Source: Brucella pseudogrignonensis (GTDB lineage: Bacteria; Pseudomonadota; Alphaproteobacteria; Rhizobiales; Rhizobiaceae). From it: DNA of 64,000 nt. A program made the translations under genes and the position numbers. The stretch covers positions 739,972-803,971 of the forward strand of contig NZ_NNRM01000017.1 in NCBI RefSeq assembly GCF_002252525.1, in the 5' to 3' direction. This document shows, piece by piece, positions 12,756 to 27,242 of the stretch. The notes below the pieces were generated by a model. The model made no database searches. It was not told where the DNA came from and worked only from the letters and a program-made list of their open reading frames with translations. How positions within the stretch are numbered: position 1 is the first letter of the stretch; the number at the start of each line of letters is the position of its first letter.

Positions 12756-12870
12756 GAACTCTACTTTATAGCCGTTAAAGTTGTGAGACGAGCGAAACCT
12801 ACCCGTCAATCATATCAGATTAATAAGCTATAACTCACGTAAATTAGTAAACAGATATCATAAAAAGATC

Positions 12871-13065: not shown

Positions 13066-13575
13066 TTGAAAACGCGAAAAATTGACGACTGCCGCGAGGC
13101 GAGGGTCAGGCTGGCTTTTCGCCTGCAAATGAAACACGACGTTGCCGTCACCGAAATCGCAAAGGTGATGGGATGCTCCGAGAGACAATATCTTCATTGG
13201 TTGAAGCGCTTTGGTCTGAATGAGCAGGTGCAAATCAAATCGTCCAGCACCGAAAATGCTCTGCAACGATTGCGGACTGAGCTCAACAAACTGATCGATG
13301 GGGAGGAGCTGCCAGACAAAAACAAGGCAGAAGCCCTCATGGCTCTGGCGAAAGCCGTGAAGACGGTTGGTGAGCTTGCAGTTGAGACGGGGGCGTCGGA
13401 AGTGGACGGTGGTGCTTTGGCACCAAGCCTTCATGAAGCCAGACAGGCTCTGGCTCGCATAGACAGGAGAATCGACGAACTTGCAAAAAGGCGCGCGCAG
13501 GAAATCTTGGGGCGCGGACTTGACGCGAAATCAGATCATGACAGCGGAAAGCGAATGGCTGCTCAAGGCGCGTGA
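13066..13575 (+). CDS. GTA g1-like small terminase subunit
   Basis: The 169-residue product has an early helix-turn-helix (about residues 24-48: VAVTEIAKVMGCSERQYLHW, LKRFGL), a charged middle (NKLIDGEELPDKNKAEALMALAKAV) and a helical C-terminus. Position as the first gene, directly overlapping the large terminase gene, and the HTH match the RcGTA g1/TerS role of DNA recognition in packaging. The TTG start is uncertain: a better Shine-Dalgarno (AAGGGGAG, 13041-13048) precedes TTG 13050 in another frame, which would join this frame if the A-run near 13078 were one base shorter. The next start inside is ATG 13129. Confidence 0.68.
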   Translation: MKTRKIDDCREARVRLAFRLQMKHDVAVTEIAKVMGCSERQYLHWLKRFGLNEQVQIKSSSTENALQRLRTELNKLIDGEELPDKNKAEALMALAKAVKTVGELAVETGASEVDGGALAPSLHEARQALARIDRRIDELAKRRAQEILGRGLDAKSDHDSGKRMAAQGA

Positions 13576-14773
13576 TGCGCAATTGCCGCCGCCCGCTGGT
13601 TGGCGAACCTGGCTTATTCTGGGTGGTCGCGGCTCTGGCAAAACGCGTGCTGGTGCTGAATGGGTGTCTGGCATGGCACTGGGCTTGGCACCTTTTGCAG
13701 CAAAGGCTTGTGGGCACATCGCGCTGGTCGGTGAAACTTTTGCCGATGCGCGCGAGGTGATGGTGGATGGTCCCTCCGGCATATTGTCAGTCTCACGGCT
13801 TTCGCGGCCGCGATATGAAGCAACGCGTAAGCGACTTCTGTGGGACAATGGTGCGGTGGCATCGCTTTATTCGTCCGAAGATCCGGATGGTTTACGCGGA
13901 CCGCAATTTGATGCTGCATGGTGTGATGAGCTGGCGAAATGGAAGAACCCACAAGCCACATGGGACATGCTGCAATTTGGCCTGCGTCTGGGCGATTTCC
14001 CGCGTCAGGTTGTGACGACGACACCGAGGGCCGTGCCTTTGTTGAAGGCATTGATATGCGATGTTTCAGTTTCGATGACGCATATGCGGACATCTGAAAA
14101 CGCAGCCAATCTGGCGAATGGTTTTATTGAGACGATTAACCAGCGATATGCCGGAACAAGGCTCGGACGACAGGAACTGGAAGGCGAGCTTATCGAAGAA
14201 CGCGCAGGCACCTTGTGGTCGCGTGAGCGGATAGAACAGTGCTTTGAGGTTCAGGCACCGCAACTTATCCGCATTCTGGTGGCGATCGACCCTCCTGCTT
14301 CTTCGGGTAAGTCGTCGGATGCTTGCGGGATTGTGGTTGCAGGTATCGATGAAAATGGTTTTGCGCATGTGCTTGCCGATGAAACCATGAACATGGCCAA
14401 GCCACATCAATGGGCGCGACGGGCGATTGCGCTTTATCATTCCTTTGAAGCGGATGCGGTTCTGGCTGAGGTTAATCAGGGCGGCGAAATGGTTGCAGCC
14501 GTGCTTGCGGCGGAAGATGCGACGGTGCCGGTTCTGATGCGGCGTGCCTCGCGCGGCAAGTGGTTACGCGCCGAACCGGTGGCAGCCCTTTATGAACAGG
14601 GGCGTGTTCGCCATACCGGGCGTTTCGCAGCACTTGAAGACGAAATGTGTGACTTTGCGCCGGAAGGGCTCTCGAACGGACGCTCGCCGGATCGCCTTGA
14701 TGCACTCGTTTGGGCGCTGGCCGAACTCATGCTGGGTGGCGAACGAAAGCCACGTATCCGGCGCTTCGGGTAA
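13538..14773 (+). CDS. GTA large terminase subunit (g2, TerL)
   Basis: The 411-residue packaging motor has the ATPase Walker A LILGGRGSGKTRAGAEW (about residues 25-41), Walker B FDAAWCDELAKW and coupling TTTPR motifs. The nuclease part follows with VAIDPPASS, an acidic residue in LAEVNQGG and the conserved SPDRLDALVWAL. The length and the PPPAGWRTWLILGGRG start match RcGTA g2 and its relatives. ATG 13538 is chosen over TTG 13481; either overlaps the g1 gene. In GTAs this motor packs host DNA by headful. No lesion is seen. Confidence 0.93.
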   Translation: MTAESEWLLKARDAQLPPPAGWRTWLILGGRGSGKTRAGAEWVSGMALGLAPFAAKACGHIALVGETFADAREVMVDGPSGILSVSRLSRPRYEATRKRLLWDNGAVASLYSSEDPDGLRGPQFDAAWCDELAKWKNPQATWDMLQFGLRLGDFPRQVVTTTPRAVPLLKALICDVSVSMTHMRTSENAANLANGFIETINQRYAGTRLGRQELEGELIEERAGTLWSRERIEQCFEVQAPQLIRILVAIDPPASSGKSSDACGIVVAGIDENGFAHVLADETMNMAKPHQWARRAIALYHSFEADAVLAEVNQGGEMVAAVLAAEDATVPVLMRRASRGKWLRAEPVAALYEQGRVRHTGRFAALEDEMCDFAPEGLSNGRSPDRLDALVWALAELMLGGERKPRIRRFG

Positions 14774-14800
14774 AATTTAACTTTATTGGAGAGCCGATAT

Positions 14801-15994
14801 ATGGCGTGGAACTGGCCGTGGCGCAGAGGTGCTGCGAATGCCCCTTCGTATTCTGAAGCGGGGCGAGAGAGAAAAAGCGCAAATGGCTTCGTGGCGCTGC
14901 ATATGGAGCGCGGCGCTTCGTGGATTGCGCGGGATTATACGTCGCTCGCTCGCGAGGGCTTCATGCGCAATCCGGTCGCGCATCGCTGCGTGCGGCTGAT
15001 CGCGGAAGCGGCCAGCAATGTACCGTGGCTGTTCTATGAAGGCATGACCGAACATGAAGTGCATCCGTTGCTCGACCTCATCGCGACACCGCAATGCGGG
15101 CTTGATGGTAGCAGTTTCTTCGAACGGCTTTATGGGCATTTGCTGATTTCGGGAAATGCATATGTCGAGCGCGTCGATCTGCCGAGCGGTAGACGTGAGC
15201 TGCATCTTCTGCGGCCTGAAAGAGTGACGCTGGAAACATCGAGTGACGGCTGGCCGCAATCGCTGGTCTACCGCTCAGCCAATACGAGCCGCATGGTTTC
15301 GCTCGCGGGGGCAGGGTGTTTTGGCCTGCATCTGAAGCTTTTTCATCCGCTGGATGATCATTATGGTTTTCCGCCGCTTGAAGCAGCTCTGATGGCGCTT
15401 GATCTGCACAATGCGGCAGGTGCCTGGAACAAGGCTTTGCTTGATAACTCTGCACGGCCTTCCGGTGCGCTGGTCTATGCGCCCAAAGACGGTGGCAACC
15501 TGACTGAAGAGCAGTTTGACCGCCTGAAAACCGAACTTGAGGAGGGCTACACCGGAGCATCTGGTGCGGGACGGCCGCTGCTTCTTGAAGGGGGACTCGA
15601 CTGGAAGGCTATGGGTTACAGCCCACAGGATATGGATTTCATCGAAGCGAAAAATGGGGCGGCTCGCGACATTGCTTTGGCATTTGGCGTGCCGCCGATG
15701 CTGCTAGGCATTCCGGGCGACAACACTTACGCCAATTATGCCGAAGCCAACCGCGCATTTTATCGCCTGACAGTGCTGCCGCTGATCAACCGTACGGCAA
15801 AGGCTTTCGGTTGTTGGTTGGGTCCATTGTTTGGTGACGATCTCAGACTTGAGCACGATACTGACCGCATCGAAGGTCTGTCGCTGGAGCGGGAATCGCT
15901 CTGGCGGCGCGTGTCGGAAGCCTCATTCCTGAGTGATGACGAGAAACGCGATGCGGTTGGCTATCAGCCGCGTGCGGAAAGGAGAGTTTCATGA
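14801..15994 (+). CDS. GTA portal protein (g3, HK97 family)
   Basis: The 397-residue product is a full-length HK97-type portal, the dodecameric ring through which DNA enters the head. Typical segments are REGFMRNPVAHRCVRLIAE, LLISGNAYVERV, DDHYGFPPLEAA, ALLDNSARPSGAL and GVPPMLLGIPGDNTYANY. The ATG at 14801 follows GGAGAG by seven bases. It lies 27 bases after the terminase gene and its stop overlaps the next start by ATGA. Confidence 0.94.
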   Translation: MAWNWPWRRGAANAPSYSEAGRERKSANGFVALHMERGASWIARDYTSLAREGFMRNPVAHRCVRLIAEAASNVPWLFYEGMTEHEVHPLLDLIATPQCGLDGSSFFERLYGHLLISGNAYVERVDLPSGRRELHLLRPERVTLETSSDGWPQSLVYRSANTSRMVSLAGAGCFGLHLKLFHPLDDHYGFPPLEAALMALDLHNAAGAWNKALLDNSARPSGALVYAPKDGGNLTEEQFDRLKTELEEGYTGASGAGRPLLLEGGLDWKAMGYSPQDMDFIEAKNGAARDIALAFGVPPMLLGIPGDNTYANYAEANRAFYRLTVLPLINRTAKAFGCWLGPLFGDDLRLEHDTDRIEGLSLERESLWRRVSEASFLSDDEKRDAVGYQPRAERRVS

Positions 15995-16368
15995 GCAATC
16001 TGAGCGAAACCGTTATGGCGTCTGATGCAAGTCTCGTGTGGTTTGCCAAGGTTGCGGGCGCGGTGGCCGGTTCTGCCGTGTCGCTCGCCTATATGCTGCC
16101 AAATGGCAAGCGGGAAGCGGCAATCCGATTTGCGGTCGGCATCATCTGCGGCATGGTGTTTGGGGGCGCTGCAGGCGTGAAAATTGCCGAAACGCTTTCT
16201 CTGCAGACCCTGCTTGGGCGAGCCGAACTCATGTTGATGGGGTCGACGGCTGCAAGCCTCGCGGCATGGTCTGTGCTGGGCATTCTCAAACGTTTTGCTG
16301 AGCGGGCCAAGAACGCATCGCTAACTGGAATTCTACCCGTTGAAAGGAACAGGAATGGCAAAGCCTGA
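15991..16368 (+). CDS. Small membrane protein within the GTA head module (g3.5 position)
   Basis: The 125-residue protein has about three hydrophobic segments (VAGAVAGSAVSLAYML, AVGIICGMVFGGAAGV, LMGSTAASLAAWSVLGIL) and a short basic tail. Small membrane proteins at this place between portal and protease are found in rhizobial GTA-type clusters (DUF6107-like, from memory). Its role is unknown; holin or assembly functions are possible but not shown. It is coupled to the portal gene by ATGA, and the next gene starts inside its last five codons. Confidence 0.72.
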   Translation: MSNLSETVMASDASLVWFAKVAGAVAGSAVSLAYMLPNGKREAAIRFAVGIICGMVFGGAAGVKIAETLSLQTLLGRAELMLMGSTAASLAAWSVLGILKRFAERAKNASLTGILPVERNRNGKA

Positions 16369-17035
16369 CCTGAAACTTGAAACTAAGCGTGCATCATTGG
16401 CGCTTGAAGAGATCGAAATCGATGGCAGCTTTTCAGGCTATGCAAGCGTGTTTGGTTTAGCTGATCTCGGCAATGATGTGATCGAAAAAGGCGCCTTTGC
16501 GAAGTCGCTCACCTCGCGCAAATCATCGGGCGTGCGAATGCTCTGGCAACACGATGCGGCTGAACCGATCGGTGTCTGGACGGATGTTCGTGAGGATGCA
16601 CGCGGCCTTTATGTCGAGGGCAGACTGGCCAAAGGCGTGGCACGCGCACGCGAAGCCCTGGAACTCATGCGCGCTGGCGGGCTGGATGGCTTGTCTATCG
16701 GCTTTCGCACGGTCAAAGCGCGCAAGGATGCGCGGACCGGTTTGCGCCACGTCACGGAAGCAGATCTCTGGGAAATCTCGGTGGTAACTTTTCCCATGCT
16801 GCCACAGGCACGCATTGATAATCTGAAGGCGGAATTGCCGACAGTCAGAGAATTTGAACGCTGGCTCACGCGGGATGCGGGGCTGAGCCGTTCTGCTGCA
16901 CGTCTGGTTATAGCCAAAGGCTATTCAGCGCTTGCAGCCATGCAAAGCCGGAACGGGCGGGACGCTTTCCAGGCAGATGATAAGGCGCTTGCGCAGCGTA
17001 TGCGCGCCGCCTGCAAGATGATGCAACTCAATTAA
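16355..17035 (+). CDS. GTA prohead protease (g4, HK97 family)
   Basis: The 226-residue product belongs to the HK97 prohead protease family, which matures the capsid. Visible are GYASVFGLADLGNDVIEKGAF, the catalytic His in LWQHDAAEPIG and the Ser in GLDGLSIGFR. The domain ends near VTFPMLPQARI; the remaining about 70 residues are an extension. ATG 16355 is preceded by GAAAGGAACAGG, which fixes the start over the TTG at 16340. The gene overlaps the preceding one by 14 bases. Confidence 0.92.
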   Translation: MAKPDLKLETKRASLALEEIEIDGSFSGYASVFGLADLGNDVIEKGAFAKSLTSRKSSGVRMLWQHDAAEPIGVWTDVREDARGLYVEGRLAKGVARAREALELMRAGGLDGLSIGFRTVKARKDARTGLRHVTEADLWEISVVTFPMLPQARIDNLKAELPTVREFERWLTRDAGLSRSAARLVIAKGYSALAAMQSRNGRDAFQADDKALAQRMRAACKMMQLN

Positions 17036-17048
17036 ATCAGGATCAAAA

Positions 17049-18311
17049 ATGGTAAAAAATCATGCAATCCCGCTCGAAACCAAGAGCGTGGAAACGAAGG
17101 CGCTTGGGAATAATGGCGATGTCTCGGAAGCCTTCGACGAGTTTATGACAGCCTTCTCGGCGTTCCGTGAAGCCAATGACGAACGTTTGAAGAAGGTTGA
17201 AAAGAGCGCCGATGTCGATGTGCTGTTGCGCGACAAGGTTGATCGTATCAACCGCGCGCTCGACGAACAGAAACAAGCACTTGACCAGTATGTTTTGAAA
17301 AGCGCCCGTCCGCAGCTTGGCAAGGGCAATGCTATTGTTGATGTCGAGCATAAGCAGGCCTTTGACGGTTATGTGCGCCGTGGCGACGAGCAGGCGATGC
17401 GTGGCATTGAGCAAAAGGCACATTCTTATGCCTCTGGTCCGGACGGTGGCTATCTGGTGCCTGCGGAACTAGAGACTGAAATCGGTCGCCGTCTGGCCGT
17501 GCTCTCGCCGATACGTGGCATCTCCAGTGTGCGCCAGGTTTCTGGTGCCGTGCTGAAAAAGCCATTCTCGGTCAGTGGCCCGGCAACGGGCTGGGTCGGC
17601 GAAACCGATGCGCGTCCGCAGACCGCTTCGGCCAAGCTTGCAGAGCTGCAGTTCCCAACGATGGAAATCTACGCAATGCCAGCGGCCACTTCTTCATTGC
17701 TTGATGACGCAGCTGTCAACGTTGAGCAGTGGATCACCGAAGAAGTCGAAGCAGCCTTTGCCGAACAGGAAGCTGCTGCCTTCATCACCGGCAATGGCCT
17801 GAACAAGCCGATGGGCTTCCTGAGCTATAGCACCGTTGAAGATGCGAGTTGGGAGTGGGGTAAGATCGGCCACATAGCCACTGGTGTTGACGGCGCATTG
17901 CCTGCTTCCGATCCATCCGACAAACTGATTGAACTCATCTATGCGCTGAAAGCTGGTTATCGCCAGAACGCCAATTTCGTGATGAACCGCAAGACGCAGA
18001 GCGTGTTGCGCAAGCTGAAAGATGCGGATGGCAATTACCTCTGGCAGCCGCCAGCGGCTGTTGGTGAAAAGGCATCGCTGATGGGCTTTGGTCTGGTCGA
18101 GGCCGAGCATATGCCAGACATTGCTGCTGACGGAACGCCTATTGCTTTTGGCGATTTTGAACGCGGTTATCTGGTGGTGGATCGTATCGGCGTGCGCGTG
18201 TTGCGCGATCCATATTCTGCCAAGCCATATGTGCTTTTCTACACCACCAAACGCGTGGGCGGCGGCGTGCAGGATTTTGATGCGATCAAGCTTCTGAAAT
18301 TCGCAGCCTGA
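17049..18311 (+). CDS. GTA major capsid protein (g5, HK97 fold)
   Basis: The 420-residue protein has the HK97-type layout: an N-terminal helical delta/scaffold domain (about 1-110, with DEFMTAFSAFREANDERLKK and a coiled coil) removed by the prohead protease, then the capsid fold with GGYLVPAELETEIGRRL, TGWVGETDARP, FITGNGLNKPMGFLSY and VLRDPYSAKPYVLFYTTKR. RcGTA g5 is its counterpart. It is intact. A 123-bp gap with two hairpins follows, the largest gap within the cluster. Confidence 0.95.
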   Translation: MVKNHAIPLETKSVETKALGNNGDVSEAFDEFMTAFSAFREANDERLKKVEKSADVDVLLRDKVDRINRALDEQKQALDQYVLKSARPQLGKGNAIVDVEHKQAFDGYVRRGDEQAMRGIEQKAHSYASGPDGGYLVPAELETEIGRRLAVLSPIRGISSVRQVSGAVLKKPFSVSGPATGWVGETDARPQTASAKLAELQFPTMEIYAMPAATSSLLDDAAVNVEQWITEEVEAAFAEQEAAAFITGNGLNKPMGFLSYSTVEDASWEWGKIGHIATGVDGALPASDPSDKLIELIYALKAGYRQNANFVMNRKTQSVLRKLKDADGNYLWQPPAAVGEKASLMGFGLVEAEHMPDIAADGTPIAFGDFERGYLVVDRIGVRVLRDPYSAKPYVLFYTTKRVGGGVQDFDAIKLLKFAA

Positions 18312-18331
18312 TATTTTTAGCAGTGATCTCC

Positions 18332-18381
18332 CTGCCGGTTTTGGCAGCTAGATTCAATTTGCGAACAGGTTGAATCTTTTT
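18332..18381 (+). terminator. Tandem hairpins after the GTA capsid gene (internal terminator)
   Basis: First CTGCC-GGTTTT-GGCAG (18332-18347), then AGATTCAA (18350-18357) and its complement TTGAATCT (18370-18377) with a 12-base loop, ending in a run of five T (18377-18381). This has the form of an intrinsic terminator between the capsid and adaptor genes, all of which should be co-expressed. It could trim transcription so that capsid is made in excess, or be bypassed by an anti-terminator. Confidence 0.6.
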
Positions 18382-18434
18382 CTGGGGTTGCATGCGTAAC
18401 TATCTGATTTGAGAGTTATTTAAGGGGAAAATAC

Positions 18435-18983
18435 ATGACAATGTTTCTTGTCACGCCGCCGGCGCTGGAGCCGGTGACGATTGCTGACGCACGCGCATTT
18501 TTGCGAATTTCGACCGATAGTGAAGATGATGTTCTGCGCCGTATCATCAAGACCGCGCGCGAGCTTGTCGAAGCCGAGACCGGACTTGCACTGGTTGATC
18601 AGACATGGCGTCTTCGCGTTGATCGTTGGCCGCGCTCGGGGCGTCTCGCTATTTTCAAGTATCCGGTAAAAGCTGTCACAGCTGTGGTCGCATATCGTCC
18701 CGACGGCAGTGCAATCGGCATGGAGCCTGAAGAGTTCATGCTCCAGCATGGCCGCCGTCCGCAACGTGTTTACATGGCGCAATATCCGGATGCACAGACG
18801 TTCTGTGGCCTTGAGGTCGACTTTATTGCAGGGTTTGGGGAAACCGGCGTTGAAGTGCCGGATGCACTCAAGCAGGCAATACTCACTTTGACCGCGCATC
18901 TCTATGAGAACCGCGCAGGTCTGGATACAGCCAAGGCTGAACTGCCCACGATGGTCGATAGCTGGCGACGAATATCCCTATGA
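18435..18983 (+). CDS. GTA head-tail adaptor protein (g6)
   Basis: The 182-residue product begins with the phage connector pattern PVTIADARAFLRIS...DDVLRRIIKTARELVEAETG, seen in gp6-like/phiE125 gp8 adaptors, and ends with VPDALKQAILTLTAHLYENR. It should bind below the portal ring and join the tail. Position after the capsid gene matches RcGTA g6. It starts 51 bases after the T-run of the internal hairpins, behind a weak GGGGAAA. Its stop overlaps the next start by ATGA. Confidence 0.88.
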   Translation: MTMFLVTPPALEPVTIADARAFLRISTDSEDDVLRRIIKTARELVEAETGLALVDQTWRLRVDRWPRSGRLAIFKYPVKAVTAVVAYRPDGSAIGMEPEEFMLQHGRRPQRVYMAQYPDAQTFCGLEVDFIAGFGETGVEVPDALKQAILTLTAHLYENRAGLDTAKAELPTMVDSWRRISL

Positions 18984-19318
18984 ACAACGTGCTGTTTATT
19001 GATCCGGGTCAGCTCACGACTGAGTTGGCCCTGGAAGCCATGCAGTCTGTTGCTGATGACATGGGTGGCTATCGCGAAACATGGTCGGAGATCGGGACTG
19101 TTTGGGGTCGTATTGAACCCCTATCAACTAGTCAGCGGGATTTCGGTATCCGGCCACGCCCGGAGATCACCCACCGCATTCTGGTGCGTCATCGTGAAGA
19201 TATCGCGACAGACAAACGCTTCCGCAAAGGTGGGCGTGTTTTCACGCTGCGCTCTGTCCACGATCCGGATGAACGCGGACGTTACCTTATCTGCCTGGCG
19301 GTGGAGGAGGGGCGGTGA
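18980..19318 (+). CDS. GTA head closure / stopper protein (g7)
   Basis: The 112-residue product matches the small head-closure family (SPP1 gp16-like): GYRETWSEIGTVWGRIEPLS, THRILVRHREDIATDKRFR and KGGRVFTLRSVHDPDERGRYL are characteristic strands. It would act as the stopper ring between adaptor and tail terminator. It is coupled by ATGA to g6 and its own stop overlaps a GTG that begins the next short frame. Confidence 0.87.
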   Translation: MNNVLFIDPGQLTTELALEAMQSVADDMGGYRETWSEIGTVWGRIEPLSTSQRDFGIRPRPEITHRILVRHREDIATDKRFRKGGRVFTLRSVHDPDERGRYLICLAVEEGR

Positions 19319-19491
19319 ATATCACGATGAAACTGACCTTCGATGGTCTCGTTCGGGCACTGCGTTTCAGGCAAATCGCGGTGCGGGAGGATATTACCAC
19401 CGGGCAGCTGATTGCCCGGCGCGACACTCAAAAATCAAGCGGGGAGCAAGATGAGGAACGGCGCGGCAGCATTGCAGAAGGCACTTTATAA
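19315..19491 (+). CDS. Short ORF between GTA g7 and g8, possibly a decayed gene
   Basis: A 58-codon frame opens with GTG overlapping the g7 stop (GTGA) and ends 41 bases inside the next gene. The first residues (MNITMKLTFDGLVRALRFR) look like the start of an HK97 gp10-type tail-completion protein, which would be twice as long or more, but the rest does not continue that pattern. It may be a truncated relic or a small real gene. RcGTA has no gene here. Low confidence. Confidence 0.35.
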   Translation: MNITMKLTFDGLVRALRFRQIAVREDITTGQLIARRDTQKSSGEQDEERRGSIAEGTL

Positions 19492-19861
19492 CGCCTTGAA
19501 GAATGACGAAGAACTTATTGAAACACTTGGGGGTGAGCATGTTTATGATCACGTTCCGCCCAAGACTCCATTTCCTTATGTCACGCTTGGCGAAACGCTG
19601 AGCAAGGACTGGAATACGGCCTCTGAGCCGGGTGGAGAACATTATCTCAATATCCAGATATGGGCGCGTGAAGCAGGCCGCAAACGCGTGCTTGAAATTG
19701 CCGGGCGTATCGCAACGAGGCTCGATGAAGAACCACTCGACCTCAATGGTCATCGCGTCGTCAATCTCATGCTGACCGAAGTTCTAGCCCGCAATACGGA
19801 CGGGTTCGGCAGCTATCTCGGCACCATGCGCTATCGCGCCGTGACCGAACCGGAAAATTAA
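19451..19861 (+). CDS. GTA tail terminator protein, DUF3168 (g8)
   Basis: The 136-residue product carries the DUF3168 pattern: ALQKALYNALKNDEELIETLG, VYDHVPPKTPFPYVTLGETL, HYLNIQIWAREAGRKRVLEI and DEEPLDLNGHRVVNLMLTE. It should cap the tail tube and stop its growth, as RcGTA g8. The ATG at 19451 is preceded by GGGGAG, which settles the start against the longer frame from 19412. Repeat copy D begins one base after its stop. Confidence 0.88.
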   Translation: MRNGAAALQKALYNALKNDEELIETLGGEHVYDHVPPKTPFPYVTLGETLSKDWNTASEPGGEHYLNIQIWAREAGRKRVLEIAGRIATRLDEEPLDLNGHRVVNLMLTEVLARNTDGFGSYLGTMRYRAVTEPEN

Positions 19862-19970
19862 AGCGCATCCCGAAAAGTGGGAACCGCCTATGCGGGGAAA
19901 TCAGTCTACTGGACTGATTTCTGATCCCGCTTCGATCAGAATTAAGATGCGCGTAAAAGCAAAAAGATCG
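19862..19970. repeat. RIME/Bru-RS-like interspersed repeat, copy D, inside the GTA cluster
   Basis: AGCGCATCCCGAAAAGTGGG is followed by AACCGCC, an internal palindromic part (AAATCAGTCTACTGGACTGATTT) and AAGATGCGCGTAAAAGC. It shares both flanks with copy B but has an extra insert in the middle. It separates g8 from the broken tail-tube gene and leaves the latter's Shine-Dalgarno (GAGGAA) intact. Confidence 0.65.
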
Positions 19971-19981
19971 AGGAACACAGA

Positions 19982-20396
19982 ATGGCAGCTCAACGCGGCA
20001 AGGATATCTTGCTGAAAATTGCGCATGGCACGGACCAGTTTGAAACCTGTGCTGGCTTGCGCACCAAGCGCATTGCTTTCAATGCCGAAACCGTCGATGT
20101 GACAGATGCGGATGCTGCCGGTCGGTGGCGGCAACTGCTGGCCGGAAGCGGCGTGCAACGAGCTTCGATCAGCGGATCGGGCATATTCAAGGATGCAACA
20201 TCGGATGCTCTTATCCGTAGTGTGTTCTTTGATGGTGAGATTCGCAACTAGCAGATATTGCTTGCCCGACTTTGGCACCATCACCGGTCCTTTCCAGATT
20301 GTGGCCCTTGAATATGGCGGCAATCACGATGCGGAGGTGACGTTTGAAATTGCACTGGAATCCGCAGGACTAATCTCCTTCGGAGATGCACTATGA
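19982..20396 (+). pseudogene. GTA major tail (tube) protein gene (g9), broken by amber codon and frameshift
   Basis: The first 89 codons (MAAQRGKDILLKIAHGTDQF...SVFFDGEIRN) match the start of TP901-1-type major tail proteins and RcGTA g9, then TAG stands at 20249-20251 where the family has Trp (EIRNWQI). After QILL the frame is also lost by one extra base in CTTGCCCGAC; in the +1 frame the family sequence resumes (PDFGTITGPFQIVALEYGG...EVTFEIALESAGLISFGDAL) and ends at 20396. Corrected, the protein would have 137 residues, the usual size. Two separate lesions 12 bases apart make a simple reading error less likely. The next start overlaps the original stop (ATGA), so the gene was once part of the coupled operon. 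Confidence 0.85.
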
Positions 20397-20731
20397 TGGT
20401 CAATCGCCATCGCGGCGAGGTTGCGGCAAAACTTGATGGCCGCGACTGGACTCTCTGCCTGACGCTGGGTGCGCTGGCACAACTGGAGTCTGCTTTTGAA
20501 GCGGACAATCTCTCCGATTTGATTGCCCGATTTTCCGGCGGCAAGCTTTCCGCCTTCGATATGCAGCGTATCATCTGCGCCGGTTTGCATGGCGGTGGAC
20601 ATGATGTGCCGTTTGAAGATGTAGCGGAGATGCGAGCAGATGGAGGCGCGAGCGGCTATGCCCGCATCGTTTCAGCACTGCTGACCGCGACCTTCGGAAC
20701 CGAAGAAAGCGATTCTCCTTCAAACCCTTGA
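20393..20731 (+). CDS. GTA g10-like tail assembly protein
   Basis: The 112-residue product belongs to the gene transfer agent family (g10): NRHRGEVAAKLDGRDWTLCL, TLGALAQLESAF, SDLIARFSGGKLSAFDMQRI and IICAGLHGGGHD are typical. In RcGTA this gene lies between tail tube and tape measure and is taken as a tail assembly chaperone, by analogy with lambda gpG. It starts at ATGATG, overlapping the stop of the broken g9 gene. Confidence 0.85.
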   Translation: MMVNRHRGEVAAKLDGRDWTLCLTLGALAQLESAFEADNLSDLIARFSGGKLSAFDMQRIICAGLHGGGHDVPFEDVAEMRADGGASGYARIVSALLTATFGTEESDSPSNP

Positions 20732-20943
20732 GTGCCGCAGTTGAATCAGTTCCTTCACGTCAGCCTTTTCCCTGGCAAGACGTGATGCGCGCAGGTTTTG
20801 GTTTGCTGCGGCTTTCCTCAAAAGACTTTTGGGCCATGACCCCACGCGAACTTGGCGCCGTTCTTGGACCCGTTTCGCAGAGCACGAATGCGCCTTCGCG
20901 CACGACACTCGACGCGCTGATGCACGCCTTTCCCGACAGGTAA
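20728..20943 (+). CDS. GTA phage tail assembly chaperone (g10.1, rcc01693-type)
   Basis: The 71-residue product has the short pattern FPWQDVMRAGFGLLRLSSKDFWAMTPREL, which is common to the small tail assembly chaperones of RcGTA-type clusters. TTG 20728 overlaps the g10 stop by four bases; GTG 20732 is out of frame, so the TTG is the only near start. Together with g10 it corresponds to the G/GT chaperone pair of phages. Confidence 0.82.
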   Translation: MSAAVESVPSRQPFPWQDVMRAGFGLLRLSSKDFWAMTPRELGAVLGPVSQSTNAPSRTTLDALMHAFPDR

Positions 20944-20949
20944 TTTAAC

Positions 20950-21498
20950 ATGACAGATGAAAACGTAACCGTTTCCGTCGAGGCGGACACGAGCGCCTTT
21001 GATCGCGCTCTGACCGATCTTGAAAAGCGTTCGTCAAGCTTCGGCTCAAGCCTGACAACGGCACTGAAAAGTGCAATCGTTTCCGGCAAGGGGCTTGATA
21101 ATGTGCTGCGCGGGCTTGCCAGTAGTCTGGCAGGCTCAGCGCTTTCTGCTGGGCTTCAGCCACTACAAAGTCTTGGCTCCTCGCTAATGTCGGGTGTGAT
21201 GGGCGGCATTCGCGGCATCATGCCCTTTGCCAAGGGCGGGGTTGTTTCAAGCCCTACTTACTTCGGCATGGGGAATGGTTCTCTGGGTCTGACGGGTGAG
21301 GCGGGAGCGGAAGCGATCCTGCCGCTGGCGCGGGGTGCCGATGGCAGGCTGGGCGTTGCAACTGGCGGCAGTGGCTCCAAGCCCGTGCAGGTCGTGTTCA
21401 ACATGACATCGCCCGACGCATCTTCCTTCCGCAAATCCGAAGCACAGCTGTCAGCCATGCTTGCGGGTGCTGTGCGCCGCGGCGCACGGAGGATGTGA
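20950..21498 (+). CDS. GTA tape measure protein (g11)
   Basis: The 182-residue protein is short for a tape measure but normal for the short tails of RcGTA-type particles. It has an amphipathic start (VEADTSAFDRALTDLEKR), a hydrophobic, Gly-rich middle (GSALSAGLQPLQSLGSSLMS, GVMGGIRGIMPFAKGGVVSS) and the conserved GLTGEAGAEAILPLARG near the end. It sets tail length and takes part in DNA passage. The frame is intact. Confidence 0.9.
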   Translation: MTDENVTVSVEADTSAFDRALTDLEKRSSSFGSSLTTALKSAIVSGKGLDNVLRGLASSLAGSALSAGLQPLQSLGSSLMSGVMGGIRGIMPFAKGGVVSSPTYFGMGNGSLGLTGEAGAEAILPLARGADGRLGVATGGSGSKPVQVVFNMTSPDASSFRKSEAQLSAMLAGAVRRGARRM

Positions 21499-21499
21499 G

Positions 21500-22129
21500 A
21501 TGGAAGCTTTTCACGATGTCCGTTTTCCGTTGGGTGTTTCATTCGGTGCGACGGGTGGGCCGGAGTGGCGCAATGAAATCGTGACACTCACATCAGGCTT
21601 TGAAAAGCGCAATGCCCGATGGGCGCATTCACGCAGACATTTCGATGCGGGAACCGGTCTGCGGTCGCTGGACGATCTGAAAACAGTGCTTGTCTTTTTC
21701 GAGGCAAGACGCGGATCGCTGCATAGTTTCCGCTTCCGCGATCCGTTCGACTTTTCTTCGGCTGCTGGCAGTTCTGCGCCATCCTTTACCGATCAGATGA
21801 TAGGAAAAGGCGATGGCGCAACCACCATGTTCCAGCTTGTCAAACATTACGAAGCGTACAGTCGACCGATCACACGTCCCGTTGTGGGTTCGGTGCTGGT
21901 TGGCGTCAACGGCGTGAGGCTCAACGAGGGTGAAGCTTTCACAATCGATCATGCGAAGGGGACTGTATCTTTTACCCCGGATTATGTGCCGGCTGACAGC
22001 GCACAGGTAACGGCTGGTTTCCTTTTCGATGTGCCTGTGCGCTTCGATACAGACCGCCTCACAGCAAGCATTGCTTCGTTTCAAGCAGGTGAAATCCCAT
22101 CTATTCCCATCATTGAGGTCAAGGCATGA
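21500..22129 (+). CDS. GTA distal tail protein, DUF2460 (g12)
   Basis: The 209-residue product matches DUF2460: FHDVRFPLGVSFGATGGPEW, TLTSGFEKRNARW, RRHFDAGTGLRSLDDL, VLVFFEARRGSLHSFRFRDP and SVLVGVNGV. In RcGTA this is the distal tail ring. ATG 21500 comes two bases after the tape measure stop; the upstream part of the longer frame is not conserved-looking. The stop overlaps the next start by ATGA. Confidence 0.92.
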   Translation: MEAFHDVRFPLGVSFGATGGPEWRNEIVTLTSGFEKRNARWAHSRRHFDAGTGLRSLDDLKTVLVFFEARRGSLHSFRFRDPFDFSSAAGSSAPSFTDQMIGKGDGATTMFQLVKHYEAYSRPITRPVVGSVLVGVNGVRLNEGEAFTIDHAKGTVSFTPDYVPADSAQVTAGFLFDVPVRFDTDRLTASIASFQAGEIPSIPIIEVKA

Positions 22130-23001
22130 TCCCTGTCCCGGCAGAACTTGAATCACATCTGAAGGGAGAAGTGACAAGCCATTGCTTTGCATGGCTTATC
22201 AGACGTTCCGATCAGGTGGTCTTGGGTTTCACAGATCACGACCAGGCGCTGGTTCTGGAAGGTATTTCCTGCGAGCCATTAACGGGTCTTAACAGCAGCG
22301 AAGCCACGACAACGCTCGGTCTTTCCATCGCGGGTGGCGATGTCGAAGGTGTGTTGTCGTCGATACGCATCAGCGAGACCGATATTGAGCAGGGGCGCTT
22401 TGATGGTGCCGTGGTCGAGAGCTATCTCGCCAATTGGAACATGCCAGATCAGCACATGCTTTTGCGGCGCTGGACGGTCGGGGCAATCACGCGCTCAGGT
22501 GGCCGGTTTGTGATGGAACTGAAGGGTGCTGCTGCGGCTTTTGATGCCGTCTGTGGACGGCGTGTTCTGCGTCAATGCGATGCGGTGCTGGGCGATAAAC
22601 GCTGCGGCGTGAATATCGACGACCCGCGCTTTTTTGCAGTTGGTTCTGTTGTAAGCGTCGACGGTGCAATTCTCAGTGTGAGTGGGCTCGATGGTTTTGC
22701 CAGCAGCTGGTTTACACAAGGGCGGCTCACATGGACAAGCGGAGATAATCAGGGCGGTTCGGTGCGCGTCCTCGCACATAGCGGCAATCGCTTGAATCTC
22801 ACAGAACCGCCAGTTCTTGCCGCAAAACCGGGCGACGGTTTTCGACTGGTGGCAGGCTGTGACAAGAGCTTTGCCACCTGCAAAGCAAAGTTTGCCAATA
22901 GCGCAAATTTTCGCGGCTTCCCGCACCTGCCGGGCAATGACGCCGCCTTTGCCTATGTCAGCTCCAACAACGAATATGACGGGAGCGCGCTGGTTCCATG
23001 A
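22126..23001 (+). CDS. GTA tail hub protein, DUF2163 (g13)
   Basis: The 291-residue product matches DUF2163/phage_BR0599: CFAWLIRRSDQVVLGFTDHD, LEGISCEPLTGLNSSEATTT, VESYLANWNMPDQHMLLRR and Cys-bearing CDAVLGDKRCGVNIDDP and AGCDKSFATCKAKFAN. The conserved Cys residues suggest the iron-sulfur site seen in the RcGTA hub. It is coupled by ATGA to both neighbours. Confidence 0.92.
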   Translation: MIPVPAELESHLKGEVTSHCFAWLIRRSDQVVLGFTDHDQALVLEGISCEPLTGLNSSEATTTLGLSIAGGDVEGVLSSIRISETDIEQGRFDGAVVESYLANWNMPDQHMLLRRWTVGAITRSGGRFVMELKGAAAAFDAVCGRRVLRQCDAVLGDKRCGVNIDDPRFFAVGSVVSVDGAILSVSGLDGFASSWFTQGRLTWTSGDNQGGSVRVLAHSGNRLNLTEPPVLAAKPGDGFRLVAGCDKSFATCKAKFANSANFRGFPHLPGNDAAFAYVSSNNEYDGSALVP

Positions 23002-23432
23002 ATATTGCAGATAGAATTCTGACGGAGGCGGAAAGCTGGATTGGCACGCCCTACCGCCACAGCGCTTCCGCGCGCGGTATCAGTTGCGATTGCCTTGGGC
23101 TCGTGCGCGGTATCTGGCGCAAGATCTATGGCACTGAACCGGAAAGTCCCGGTACCTATGCGCCAGACTGGGCGGAGGCCGCTCACGGCGATCCGCTGCT
23201 TGAAGCCGCATCGCGCCATATGCAGCGCCGCGACGGCACTGATCCGCAGCCGGGTGATCTCCTCGTTTTTCGCTGGCGGTCCGATATGGCGGCCAAGCAT
23301 CTTGGCATTATGGCCAATGAGAACCGTTTCATCCATGCCTATGAGGGGCATCGGGTGATGGCTTCTGGGCTGGTGCCGCAATGGCAAAAACGTATAGCCG
23401 GAATTTTCATTTTTCCTGAACCAGAAGGTTAA
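22998..23432 (+). CDS. GTA NlpC/P60 cell-wall peptidase (g14)
   Basis: The 144-residue enzyme has the NlpC/P60 layout with the catalytic Cys in GISCDCLGLVRGIWR (second Cys, about residue 31) and His in AAKHLGIM (about 98). PGDLLVFRW is the usual strand before it. In RcGTA-like particles this tail-tip peptidase helps pierce the peptidoglycan of the recipient. It starts at ATG overlapping the g13 stop. Confidence 0.92.
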   Translation: MNIADRILTEAESWIGTPYRHSASARGISCDCLGLVRGIWRKIYGTEPESPGTYAPDWAEAAHGDPLLEAASRHMQRRDGTDPQPGDLLVFRWRSDMAAKHLGIMANENRFIHAYEGHRVMASGLVPQWQKRIAGIFIFPEPEG

Positions 23433-23435
23433 GCA

Positions 23436-26400
23436 ATGGCGACTGTTGTTCTGCAGGCGGTGGGCGCTGCCGTCGGTGGCATTTTTGGCCCTGTGGGTGC
23501 TGCCATCGGCGCAGGGCTTGGCGCAATGGGTGGTTATGCCATCGATACGGCTATCATCAACTCCACCCGCCATATGGAAGGGGCAAGGCTCAATGGCGGG
23601 CGCGTGGCAACAGCCGAAGAAGGAGCAGCTCTGCCGTTCGTCTATGGCACGGCAAGACTTTCCGGCACGCTGATTTGGGCGACAAGGCATGAGGAAAAGA
23701 AAACTACGGAGCGTCAGGGCGGCAAGGGCGGTCCGAAGGTGACCTCCTACAGCTATTTCGGTAATGCAGCCTATGCCGTTGCCGAGGGGGAAATTGCTGG
23801 CATTCGCCGTGTCTGGGCCGACGGGCAAGAGCTTGACCTTACGGAAATCGAAATGCGCATTTATCACGGCACGGATACGCAGCAGCCCGATCCGCTGATT
23901 GAAGCCAAGCAAGGCACAGGCAATGCTCCCGCCTATCGCGGAACGGCCTATGTCGTGTTTGAGCGTATTCCGCTTGATGTCTATGGCAATCGCTTGCCAC
24001 AGTTTCAGTTCGAGGTTCTGCGCCCGGTTGGGAAGCTGGCGCGAGATGTCCGTGCTGTCGCGCTTATTCCCGGTTCAACCGAGTTCGGTCTTTCGCCAAC
24101 TCCCGTTACGGATCGACCGTCGCCTGGTGAAAGCCGCAAGCTTAATCGAAATGCAAAACGCGGTCGCAGCGATTGGACCGTGGCCATGGATGAACTGCAG
24201 TCGCTTTGTCCTCAGTTGCAGCATGTGGCGATTGTCCTGCCGTGGTTTGGCGATGACTTGCGCGCAGGATATTGCCAGATACGCCCCGGTGTTACCCATC
24301 AGAGTGCTTTGTCGTCGAGCCAGACATGGAAAGTTGAGAATGTTACGCGCAGCGGAGCGCATCTGATTTCCCAGAGCGGCGAGGGAGCGGCCTATGGTGG
24401 TACACCATCCGACCAGAGTGTGGTTGATGCAATCCGCGATGCCAAGGCGCGCGGCCTGAAAGTAACGCTATATCCTTTCATCATGATGGATGTTCCCGCC
24501 GGCAACTCGCTGCCGTCGCCTTATGGCGGTGTGGGACAATCCGTTTACCCATGGCGTGGGCGCATAACTTGTAGTCCCGCGATTGGTATCTCTGGATCAC
24601 CTGACAAGACGCTGGAAGCGGCCGATCAGGTTACAGCTTTCGTCAACGGAACATGGGGTTACAGACGTTTTCTGAATCACTGTGCAAGCCTCGCAATACA
24701 GGCGGGCGGGGTTGATGCGTTTTTGCTGGGTTCCGAACTGCGTGGTCTTACCAGCATCCGCGAAAGCCGCGACAGCTTTCCGTTTGTAACCCATCTCTGC
24801 ACGCTTGCAGCCGAAATGCGCATGAAACTCGGGCAGAGCTGTCGCATCAGTTACGGCGCGGACTGGACTGAATATTTCGGCTATCAGGCGCAGGATGGCA
24901 CCGGCGATCTCTTCTTCAATCTTGACGCGCTATGGGCACATCCAGCCATCGATGCCATTGGTATCGACAATTACATGCCGCTCGCTGACTGGCGAGACGG
25001 CGACCTGGATGGCGGCAACCCTGATGGTTTTGAAGGTGCTTACGATCTTGATAGTCTGAGCAGCAACATCGAAGCGGGTGAGGGGTTCGACTGGTATTAT
25101 GCCAATAGCGAAAACCGTGAGCAGCGCAAGCGCACACCAATCACGGATGGGCTTGCGGGCAAGCCATGGGTTTACCGATACAAAGACATTCGCTCATGGT
25201 GGAGCAACCCACACTATAATCGCATTGATGGTGCCGAGGCTTTTGCGCCAACGGCATGGGCTCCACAATCAAAGCCCATATGGTTCACCGAACTGGGATG
25301 CCCGGCGGTCGATAAAGGACCAAACCAGCCTAATGTGTTCCCTGATCCGAAATCCTCGGAAAACGCGACACCCTATTTTTCGAATGGAGCGCGTTCCGAT
25401 ATTGCCATGGATCGCTTTCTGCGGGCGCATTATCACTACTGGCCGGATAGGAACCCAGTTTCCCCAATCTATGGCGGGCCGATGCTCGACATGGATCGCG
25501 TCTATCTCTGGTCATGGGATACGAGACCGTTTCCGGAGTTTCCGCTGAAAGCCAATGTGTGGGGAGACACACCAAACTGGCGGTTGGGACATTGGCTCAA
25601 TGGCCGCATGAGCGGTGTTGCTCTTGATGAGCTTATTGCAGCTATCCTCGCAGATTTTGGATTGCCGGAAGCAGACTGCACAGGCGCAGATGGGCATCTG
25701 ACTGGCTTCGTGATTTCAGAACCCAGCACGGCTCGCGGTGTGCTGGAGCCACTGATGAATGTGTTTGGTGTGCACGGCTTTGAGCAGTCAGGGCAGTTCA
25801 AGTTCCGCAGCATTGGTCGTGCGGCTCCTGTACTTAATGTGGCGGCTACGCTTGTCGAACCGACCGATGACGAAGCGCTGACCGCGGTTCTTGAGGATCA
25901 GGGCGATTTACCTTCGGTAGCTGAACTTTACTGCAACGATCCGCTGCGTGATTTTCAGGTGGTCGGTGCATCGGTGCGGCGCGATATGGGCCAAGGCACG
26001 GAAAGCCTCAGCCTCTCCGGCTCAATGGAAGCGGGACAGGCGACCGCACTCGCGGAAGCCTGGATGGCACGCCGTTATGCTGAACGGCGGACAGCAAGTT
26101 TCTCATTGCCGTGGTCTGAGGCTGCCCTGCATGTCGGTGATCGTGTGCGGCTCGATATGCTGGGCGGTGGGCGCGATTATGTTGTGTCGTCTCTCGAAGA
26201 CGGAGAGGTGCGGGTGGTGAAAGCTGTAGCACTGGCACCCAATGTGGCTTTTGCTGATAGGGGAGAAACGCCGCAGCTGACGCCGGGCGGACCTGTTTCG
26301 GATATGAAGCCGATATTTCATCTCATCGACCTGCCACTCTGGCCAGGTGCAGAAGATCCGGCTGGTCAGTTTCGTATTGCCTGTCATGCAAAGCCGTGGC

Positions 26401-27242
26401 GTGGGGTCGCGACTTATGCTTCGCCTTCCGATGACGGCTTTGCCGAGCGTGGTCTGATTGGGGAGCGCGCCGTTATGGGTGAGCTGACAGCTCCATTGCC
26501 CGGAGGGGCAAGTGGGCGACTTATCGACGGTCAAACATTGGAACTGGTGCTGTATTCGGGTGAGCTGGAATCGAAACCGTTCACGCAAATCCTGAATGGT
26601 GCCAATACCGCGCTTGTGCAGTCCTCCGATGGAAAATGGGAGGTACTGCAGTTTCTTGATGCTCAAGAAATCGGCCAGAACCATTGGCGCTTAAACAGTC
26701 TTTTGCGCGGGCAGCTTGGCACAGAAGCCGCTAGCCTCAATGAAAAGCCGACGGGTACGCCCTTCATCCTGCTGGATGGGGGCGTTCAAAGCATAGGTTT
26801 GCAAACATCTGAAATCGGGTTGGAACTCAACTGGCGCATTGGAGCGGCCGGTAAATCGTTCTCGGACGATTTTTTCGACACTGTAAAAGCAATCGGCGGT
26901 GTGCAGGCGTTGAAACCATTGAGTCCTGTTCACCTCAAAGCAGAGCGGCTCAGTAATAATGATCTGTTGTTCGGCTGGATCAGGCGCGGCCGTGCTGATG
27001 CCGATAGCTGGCTTGGGGAAGAGATTCCACTGGGTGAAGAGCGCGAAGCCTATCAGGTCGAAATTTGGCGTTCGGATGTGCTTGTCCGAAGCGTTCAGGT
27101 GCAAGCGGCTTCCTGGATTTACCCCGGTGCAGACCGGCTTTCGGATTTGGGGGCCAGCGACTTCCAGCTTCGCGTTGCAATGGTGAGTTCTAAAATCGGA
27201 GCAGGGGATTTCGCTTGCATTGATATTTCAAGTGGGATCTGA
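23436..27242 (+). CDS. GTA megatron / host-specificity baseplate protein with TIM-barrel domain (g15)
   Basis: The 1268-residue protein is the largest in the cluster and full-length for the RcGTA g15 family. A hydrophobic Gly/Ala-rich start (VVLQAVGAAVGGIFGPVGA) is followed by a tail-lysozyme-like region, the glycoside-hydrolase-like TIM-barrel (about 300-640; SYGADWTEYFGYQ, IDAIGIDNYMPLADW, PIWFTELGCPAVDKG) and a long gpJ-like C-terminal part (from about 780) with receptor-contact domains. In RcGTA this protein forms the central tail tip through which DNA leaves. No lesion is seen. Confidence 0.93.
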   Translation: MATVVLQAVGAAVGGIFGPVGAAIGAGLGAMGGYAIDTAIINSTRHMEGARLNGGRVATAEEGAALPFVYGTARLSGTLIWATRHEEKKTTERQGGKGGPKVTSYSYFGNAAYAVAEGEIAGIRRVWADGQELDLTEIEMRIYHGTDTQQPDPLIEAKQGTGNAPAYRGTAYVVFERIPLDVYGNRLPQFQFEVLRPVGKLARDVRAVALIPGSTEFGLSPTPVTDRPSPGESRKLNRNAKRGRSDWTVAMDELQSLCPQLQHVAIVLPWFGDDLRAGYCQIRPGVTHQSALSSSQTWKVENVTRSGAHLISQSGEGAAYGGTPSDQSVVDAIRDAKARGLKVTLYPFIMMDVPAGNSLPSPYGGVGQSVYPWRGRITCSPAIGISGSPDKTLEAADQVTAFVNGTWGYRRFLNHCASLAIQAGGVDAFLLGSELRGLTSIRESRDSFPFVTHLCTLAAEMRMKLGQSCRISYGADWTEYFGYQAQDGTGDLFFNLDALWAHPAIDAIGIDNYMPLADWRDGDLDGGNPDGFEGAYDLDSLSSNIEAGEGFDWYYANSENREQRKRTPITDGLAGKPWVYRYKDIRSWWSNPHYNRIDGAEAFAPTAWAPQSKPIWFTELGCPAVDKGPNQPNVFPDPKSSENATPYFSNGARSDIAMDRFLRAHYHYWPDRNPVSPIYGGPMLDMDRVYLWSWDTRPFPEFPLKANVWGDTPNWRLGHWLNGRMSGVALDELIAAILADFGLPEADCTGADGHLTGFVISEPSTARGVLEPLMNVFGVHGFEQSGQFKFRSIGRAAPVLNVAATLVEPTDDEALTAVLEDQGDLPSVAELYCNDPLRDFQVVGASVRRDMGQGTESLSLSGSMEAGQATALAEAWMARRYAERRTASFSLPWSEAALHVGDRVRLDMLGGGRDYVVSSLEDGEVRVVKAVALAPNVAFADRGETPQLTPGGPVSDMKPIFHLIDLPLWPGAEDPAGQFRIACHAKPWRGVATYASPSDDGFAERGLIGERAVMGELTAPLPGGASGRLIDGQTLELVLYSGELESKPFTQILNGANTALVQSSDGKWEVLQFLDAQEIGQNHWRLNSLLRGQLGTEAASLNEKPTGTPFILLDGGVQSIGLQTSEIGLELNWRIGAAGKSFSDDFFDTVKAIGGVQALKPLSPVHLKAERLSNNDLLFGWIRRGRADADSWLGEEIPLGEEREAYQVEIWRSDVLVRSVQVQAASWIYPGADRLSDLGASDFQLRVAMVSSKIGAGDFACIDISSGI

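What the first reader, a model, noticed from the sequence alone, without database searches (positions are those of the whole stretch)
19982..20396. Tail-tube gene of the GTA carries two inactivating lesions
The frame meets TAG at 20249-20251 where the family has Trp (EIRN-W-QI). A further single extra base in CTTGCCCGAC shifts the rest into the +1 frame, where the family sequence resumes to the normal end. All other main structural genes look open. Loss of only the tail tube would leave heads without functional tails, an early decay state or a trap for DNA without release.
Basis: seen in the sequence. Interest (0 to 1): 0.75.

Follow-up and report, generated by a model that had tools for sequence, protein, structure and literature searches.

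The report
Freshly broken gene-transfer-agent tail gene
A bacterium of the Brucella/Ochrobactrum group carries an otherwise open gene-transfer-agent cluster whose tail-tube gene looks very recently broken by two neighbouring mutations; it is a clean new example of a known kind of decay, not a new mechanism.

Summary
In an otherwise open RcGTA-like cluster (window 13538-27242) the tail-tube gene gp9 meets TAG at 20249-20251, after 89 of the family's 137 residues; the last third continues in another frame (20262-20396). Of 35 genomes of the genus, 25 have uninterrupted GTA-type gp9, nine have no match to its first 89 residues, and only this one is split. In the nearest genome (G024) gp9 is open, and between 19938 and 20620 the two lesions are the only differences, although flanking GTA genes differ by about 4%. 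So the damage is recent, or a local assembly error: the only other record with it (L149) is identical and probably the same isolate. The genome's second tail-tube gene belongs to a separate prophage. Elsewhere in the genus there are three other single-gene lesions (gp2, gp12, gp15) and nine eroded or nearly deleted clusters. Pseudogenized and lost GTAs are already reported for alphaproteobacteria (PMC10883770, passages). 'Early decay' is supported; 'DNA trap' has no evidence. New member of a known kind.

The parts
13066..13575 (+). HTH protein, perhaps small-terminase-like gp1 (inferred from position)
   Evidence: weak HTH Pfam matches, none clearly over its cut-off; position before gp2
13538..14773 (+). 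gp2 large terminase, open
   Evidence: PF03237/PF17289; open
14801..15994 (+). gp3 portal, open
   Evidence: PF04860; open
15991..16368 (+). gp3.5, DUF6107, open
   Evidence: PF19602
16355..17035 (+). gp4 prohead protease, open
   Evidence: PF04586
17049..18311 (+). gp5 major capsid, open
   Evidence: PF05065; only match to this protein in G000
18435..18983 (+). gp6 head-tail connector, open
   Evidence: PF05135
18980..19318 (+). gp7 head completion, open
   Evidence: PF05521
19451..19861 (+). gp8 tail terminator, open
   Evidence: PF11367
19982..20251 (+). gp9 tail tube, N-terminal piece ending at premature TAG (20249-20251)
   Evidence: PF06199 positions 1-87; 100% aa identity to G024
20262..20396 (+). 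gp9 tail tube, C-terminal piece in another frame (net shift of one base), running to the family's normal end
   Evidence: PF06199 positions 96-132; residues 94-137
20393..20731 (+). gp10, open; its start overlaps the family's gp9 stop
   Evidence: PF11836; sequence
20950..21498 (+). gp11, tape-measure-like by position, open
   Evidence: conserved in the genus; no Pfam match
21500..22129 (+). gp12 distal tail, open
   Evidence: PF09343
22126..23001 (+). gp13 baseplate hub, open
   Evidence: PF09931/PF09356
22998..23432 (+). gp14 NlpC/P60 peptidase, open
   Evidence: PF00877
23436..27242 (+). gp15 GTA TIM-barrel protein, open
   Evidence: PF13547 E 1.4e-137, PF23666, PF13550

Best explanation
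A recent loss-of-function mutation of gp9 (major tail-tube protein) in one lineage of the Brucella/Ochrobactrum group, in an RcGTA-like cluster that was under purifying selection until shortly before. Shown: a nonsense codon after 89 of 137 codons, a one-base frame change about 13 bases further on, all other genes gp2-gp15 open, and open gp9 in the near relatives whose sequence reaches it. Inferred: the 89-residue product lacks the last third of the tail-tube protein and cannot form the tube (five hexameric discs in RcGTA), so if the genes were switched on the cell would make heads without a working tail and deliver no DNA. The early stop also leaves about 140 bases untranslated before gp10, whose start overlaps the usual gp9 stop, and may lower gp10 synthesis. 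The lineage becomes a non-producer ('cheater' in the literature's sense). The genus also shows what may follow: erosion and near-deletion of the cluster at this locus.
For: Split gene. Uniqueness: 25 of 35 genus genomes open, 9 without match to the N-piece, 1 split. Near relatives with open gp9: G024, metagenome contigs L151, L152, L227 and L260 (99.6-100% alike where aligned, so about one population) and L226. Recency: the lesions (20250, 20263) are the only differences from G024 between 19938 and 20620, in a cluster otherwise 95.75-96.04% identical. No consistent rise in amino-acid changes on the window's branch: nonsynonymous:synonymous 32:172, 45.5:159.5, 23:156, 39:148 with outgroups L226, L151, L033, L141, against 77:206, 28.5:137.5, 27.5:136.5, 30.5:169.5 on G024's branch; Fisher p 0.003 (fewer in the window), 0.19, 0.29, 0.15. 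Not a generally faulty assembly: of 203 coding-like G024 ORFs over 262 kb, none has an internal stop in G000 and 4 have a frame-changing gap, of which 3 lie within about 90 bases of the ORF start and 1 is a compensated pair (gp9 itself was not in this set, having too few differences). Tail-tube identity: RcGTA Rcc01691, 137 aa, E 2.2e-30; discs and contacts from PMC7296036 (passages). Same route in the genus: gp12 stop (G001), gp2 stop (G011), gp15 two stops (G016); nine eroded or nearly deleted clusters.
Against: The lesion rests on one assembly: the only other record with it (L149, IMGVR_UViG_2854890933_000003) is 100% identical over 14,163 bases and is probably the same genome. Two lesions 13 bases apart are odd for independent hits; one clustered mutation or a local artefact would each explain it better. 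Loss of function is inferred from truncation, not measured. Whether this GTA is produced in this organism is unknown; regulators, spikes and fibres outside the cluster were not checked. A cruder ORF comparison showed 8 of 228 G024 ORFs broken-looking or partial in G000 and 15 of 228 the other way; it included antisense ORFs and was replaced.
Confidence: 0.86

Rival explanations
1. Local sequencing or assembly error: gp9 is intact in the organism and both lesions are artefacts of one stretch of consensus.
For: Both lesions lie within 15 bases; nothing else between 19938 and 20620 differs from G024; no clearly independent record exists. G009, another genome of the genus, shows how assembly noise can mimic decay: frame breaks there also hit the neighbouring housekeeping genes.
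Against: Elsewhere the assembly is clean: 0 internal stops and no uncompensated mid-gene frame change among 203 coding-like ORFs over 262 kb. In the window's own alignment to G024 12 of 14 gaps change frame; besides gp9, those falling in ORFs of 150 aa or more lie at ORF edges (35079, 53061, 59144). The site is not a long single-base run.
Confidence: 0.12
2. Recoding: the stop and the frame change are bypassed by readthrough and frameshifting, so full-length gp9 is still made.
For: Both frames remain otherwise open and the C-part is 100% identical to the G024 protein.
Against: Of 159 rows examined 132 read straight through gp9, 2 (window and L149) are split and 25 are absent, partial or cut by a contig end (rows include repeated genomes), so neither element is conserved. 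Open frames are expected anyway if the lesions are very recent. I recall no recoding gene that needs both events this close together.
Confidence: 0.02
3. Selected tail loss: heads without tails are kept for a purpose, such as holding DNA without release. (Accepts the lesion as real, so not exclusive of the best explanation.)
For: All head genes are open.
Against: All other tail genes are open too; three other species broke terminase, distal tail or hub genes instead; the lesion is too recent for selection to be read from sequence.
Confidence: 0.02
4. Complementation by the second tail-tube gene (G000:C41). (Also accepts the lesion as real.)
For: A PF06199 protein exists there, 58.8 bits.
Against: It belongs to a prophage with its own portal, S49 protease, capsid, tail completion protein and tape measure and is 25% identical over 73 residues to GTA gp9.
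Confidence: 0.01

Closest known systems
Rhodobacter capsulatus GTA (RcGTA), tail tube Rcc01691 / g9
   Same: Tail tube of 137 residues in intact relatives and E 2.2e-30 to Rcc01691; terminator g8, tail tube g9, distal tail g12 as named in PMC7296036 (passages); GTA_TIM domain in gp15. The rest of the RcGTA gene order is recalled.
   Different: gp9 is split by a stop and a frame change; a DUF6107 gene sits between portal and protease (that RcGTA lacks one there is recalled).
Pseudogenized GTA clusters in alphaproteobacteria (PMC10883770, passages read)
   [quoted passage not shown] this case fits.
   Different: Here one gene with two lesions in an otherwise open cluster. The main text of that paper does not contain the words Brucella or Hyphomicrobiales.
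GTA of Brucella (Ochrobactrum) pseudogrignonense NBC51/LBA8980 (PMC11767727, passages read)
   Same: Same group of organisms; GTA on chromosome 1.
   Different: Described there as a complete set of genes.

Membership tests
RcGTA-like structural gene cluster | Terminase, portal, protease, capsid, connector, completion, tail and hub genes in one collinear run | tested here: met
   Pfam matches to 14 of the 15 genes gp2-gp15 incl. gp3.5, gp11 alone without; gp9 counted by its pieces
RcGTA-like structural gene cluster | gp15 with GTA_TIM domain | tested here: met
   PF13547 E 1.4e-137
RcGTA-like structural gene cluster | Fixed chromosomal place, kept within the genus | tested here: met
   Same flanks (PBP gene, two-component pair) in G024 and in 8 of the 9 eroded genomes; in G005 the locus is at a contig end
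RcGTA-like structural gene cluster | Intact major tail protein | tested here: not met
   gp9 split: a damaged member
RcGTA-like structural gene cluster | Packages random host DNA and transfers it | not testable with these tools
   needs experiment
RcGTA-like structural gene cluster | Activator (gafA-like), lysis, spike and fibre genes elsewhere in the genome | not tested
   gafA homologues in Brucella and the order are reported in PMC9638019 (passages); not searched in G000
Pseudogene by recent point lesions | Reading frame broken while sister lineages are intact | tested here: met
Pseudogene by recent point lesions | Lesion seen in independent reads | not testable with these tools
   no raw reads; L149 identical and probably the same genome
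Pseudogene by recent point lesions | Relaxed selection on partner genes | tested here: not met
   no consistent excess of nonsynonymous changes with four outgroups; fits a very young lesion, says nothing for an old one
Ordinary prophage | Integration, replication or lysogeny genes next to the structural genes | tested here: not met
   none among the Pfam matches of the 18 window pieces scanned

The most novel reading that the evidence does not exclude
Within one genus, GTA production is repeatedly lost through single-gene structural lesions, each time in a different gene (tail tube, terminase, distal tail, hub), followed by piecemeal erosion at the same locus. The window would then be a non-producing 'cheater' lineage caught very soon after its origin, and this genus a natural series for measuring how often GTA loss arises and how far it spreads.
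Probability: 0.45. Interest if true: 0.5.

Novelty: new member of a known kind. Interest (0 to 1): 0.25.

Why it matters
Whether GTAs are kept by selection although producers must lyse is an open question (PMC6209664 and PMC10883770, passages). A cluster with one freshly broken structural gene, next to sister genomes with open clusters and others with eroded ones, is a datable step in GTA loss. In this genus 13 of 35 genomes have a broken or eroded cluster by the criteria used here (4 single-gene lesions, 9 eroded or nearly deleted), and the four single-gene lesions are four separate events on a gene tree of 31 of the 35. For the general reader it is ordinary gene decay.

Tried and rejected
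Recoding was considered and rejected: the lesions are in no relative examined. Complementation by the second tail-tube gene was checked and judged unlikely. A conspecific second isolate was sought by an exact 30-base pattern over the lesion in viral contigs and by gp5 and gp9 N-piece searches there: only L149 shares the lesion. Relaxed selection on the partner genes was tested and not found. An inverted repeat between gp8 and gp9 was looked for and not found. A first genome-wide check for broken ORFs was uninformative because length-picked ORFs include antisense ones; one search replaced it. A cross-table of DUF6107 against GTA_TIM over 247 genomes of the family was not made, because both lists are cut. 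In the survey apparent stops in gp3, gp3.5, gp4 and gp10 within the last few residues were taken as natural gene ends. G009 (Brucella oryzae record L106) was left out of the lesion counts because its frame breaks also hit PBP and the two-component genes. Four genomes (G009, G010, G017, G028) are missing from the tree: no locus of the tree genes was fetched for them. G022 and G028 could not be judged for gp15 (contig ends).

Full report
What was checked. Window 19982-20251 is an ORF of 89 codons ending in TAG. It matches the Phage_tail_2 family (PF06199) over profile positions 1-87; a second piece in another frame (20271-20393) matches positions 96-132. Compared with the natural gp9 of genome G024 (137 aa), the window aligns to residues 1-95 in one frame with a stop at residue 90 and to residues 94-137 in another frame.

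Which organism. The window is G000:C8:739972-803971 of a 5.53 Mb genome in 53 contigs. As it is a same-genus relative of listed germs, the broken gene was searched in pieces and not mended.

The cluster. Between a PBP gene (10596-12809, minus strand) and a response-regulator/kinase pair (from 28007) lie gp2 to gp15 in one run. Pfam recognises 14 of the 15 genes, gp11 alone without a match; gp15 has the GTA_TIM domain. All except gp9 are open. The N-piece matches the solved tail tube of RcGTA, Rcc01691, 137 aa, E 2.2e-30. In RcGTA the tail has five hexameric discs of this protein, whose long loop joins successive discs and the distal tail protein (PMC7296036, passages). A product cut at residue 89 of 137 can hardly build this; that step is inference.

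How unusual is it. With PF06199, 25 of 35 genus genomes have a full-length, uninterrupted GTA-type gp9 (150 bits or more); G000 is the only one split. With the N-piece as query, 26 of 35 match (those 25 plus G000); nine do not (G002, G005, G008, G013, G018, G023, G027, G033, G034). In 159 rows from genome and viral collections (several genomes occur twice) gp9 is open in 132, split in 2 (window and L149), and absent, partial or cut in 25. Of the best 80 of 479 viral-collection loci with gp9 relatives, 78 are open, 1 is cut by a contig end and 1 (L262, the contig of L149) is split.

How old is it. G024 is the closest genome (gp5 99%, gp9 N-piece 100% at protein level), 97.4-98.2% identical at DNA level along the window in three aligned blocks, and its gp9 is open. 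Within the GTA cluster the identity is 96.04% before and 95.75% after the gp9 stretch, yet between the differences at 19938 and 20620 only the two lesions differ. At about 4% one would expect some 28 differences in 681 bases, so this stretch was probably exchanged recently between the lineages (inference), and both lesions are younger than that. Partner genes agree: changes assigned to the window's branch show no consistent excess of nonsynonymous ones with four outgroups; with L226 there are significantly fewer than on G024's branch, with the other three no significant difference. With near relatives of uneven recombination history these branch counts are rough.

Error or mutation. The only other record with the lesion, IMGVR_UViG_2854890933_000003 (L149), is 100% identical over 14,163 bases and most likely the same isolate genome, so it is not independent proof. 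Against a poor assembly: over 262 kb aligned with G024, 203 ORFs with a coding-like substitution pattern include none with an internal stop in G000 and four with a frame-changing gap, three of them within about 90 bases of the ORF start and one a compensated pair 13 bases apart (gp9 itself was not in that set). In the window's alignment 12 of 14 gaps change frame; besides gp9, those in ORFs of 150 aa or more are at ORF edges (35079, 53061, 59144). Two lesions 13 bases apart are unlikely as independent hits in a 14 kb cluster; a single clustered mutation is the simpler biological account (inference), and a local consensus artefact remains possible.

The genus as context. Of the 25 genomes whose cluster was examined gene by gene, 19 are open throughout, four have a single broken gene (G000 gp9; G001 gp12 stop at 151/210; G011 gp2 stop at 353/410; G016 gp15 stops at 589 and 715 of 1268), and G022 and G028 could not be judged for gp15. 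By coordinates G001, G011 and G016 are the records Ochrobactrum chromiisoli YY2X (L041), Brucella pecoris 08RB2639 (L056) and Brucella rhizosphaerae PR17 (L040). G009 is full of frame breaks that also hit neighbouring genes and was set aside as assembly noise. The nine genomes without a gp9 N-part keep only fragments of the cluster: pieces of several genes in G008, G013, G023, G027 and G005, and only DUF6107 in G002, G018, G033 and G034; in eight of nine they lie between the same flanking genes, in G005 at a contig end; G002 is itself an assembly with frame breaks in flanking genes. On a FeuP-FeuQ gene tree of 31 of the 35 genomes the four single-gene lesions need four changes, 'eroded or gone' against 'cluster present' needs six, and 'broken in any way' against 'open' eight (parsimony counts cannot tell gain from loss, and G022 counted as open).

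Reading. 'Trap for DNA' has no support. Other species broke other single genes, so there is no pattern of keeping heads and losing the tube. The second tail-tube gene, G000:C41, sits with a portal, S49 protease, capsid, tail completion protein and tape measure of another phage and is 25% identical over 73 residues.

What is known. [quoted passage not shown] PMC6209664 (passages) argues that lysis costs make GTA maintenance hard. PMC9632790 (passages) reports Caulobacter wild-type cells acting as possible cheaters. PMC11767727 (passages) describes a complete GTA gene set in one B. pseudogrignonense isolate. My searches (listings) showed no paper on a gp9 lesion in this genus, but the library holds only open-licence papers and the listings were capped. 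So this is a new member of a known kind.

Noticed in passing
window 15991-16368; loci L372, L374, L375, L376, L378, L379, L380: gp3.5 (DUF6107) stays open at near full length in 7 of the 9 genomes that lost or eroded the GTA cluster (not G027; split over two contigs in G005), whereas of gp2-gp15 only gp6 in G013 and gp4 in G023 are near full length there. dN/dS is 0.16-0.34 in four pairs of eroded genomes, 0.045-0.124 in three pairs of cluster-bearing ones, 0.017 in one mixed pair: weaker but apparent constraint, so perhaps a function outside the GTA.
   Followed up: partly
window 19938-20620: A 681-base stretch around gp9 differs from G024 only by the two lesions while the flanks differ by about 4%: probably a recent exchange of gp9 between lineages.
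   Followed up: partly
window 19861-19885 and 3704-3728: A dispersed repeat between gp8 and gp9: a 22-base core with up to one mismatch occurs 11 times in G000, 0 times for the reversed control.
   Followed up: partly
G000:C41:10000-29900 (L148): A separate siphophage-type prophage with portal, S49 protease, HK97-type capsid, tail tube, GTA-gp10-like protein and tape measure.
   Followed up: partly
L106 / G009 (Brucella oryzae NBRC 102588 record): Many frame breaks in GTA genes and in the neighbouring PBP and two-component genes alike: looks like an error-rich assembly rather than decay.
   Followed up: partly
L052, record titled Bacillus subtilis strain SK6B4: A contig labelled Bacillus subtilis carries an RcGTA-like cluster whose gp5 is as close to the window as that of Pseudochrobactrum (74%): likely a mislabelled or mixed genome.
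   Followed up: no
G014 C1, C2, C5, C6, C7: Six matches of identical score to one prophage tail-tube gene, several near contig ends: a multi-copy prophage or an assembly effect.
   Followed up: no
window 62784-63710: A protein that reads like a tyrosine recombinase (recalled motifs in the ORF translation), some 35 kb from the cluster.
   Followed up: no
window 18946: A 12-base in-frame gap in gp6 relative to G024.
   Followed up: no
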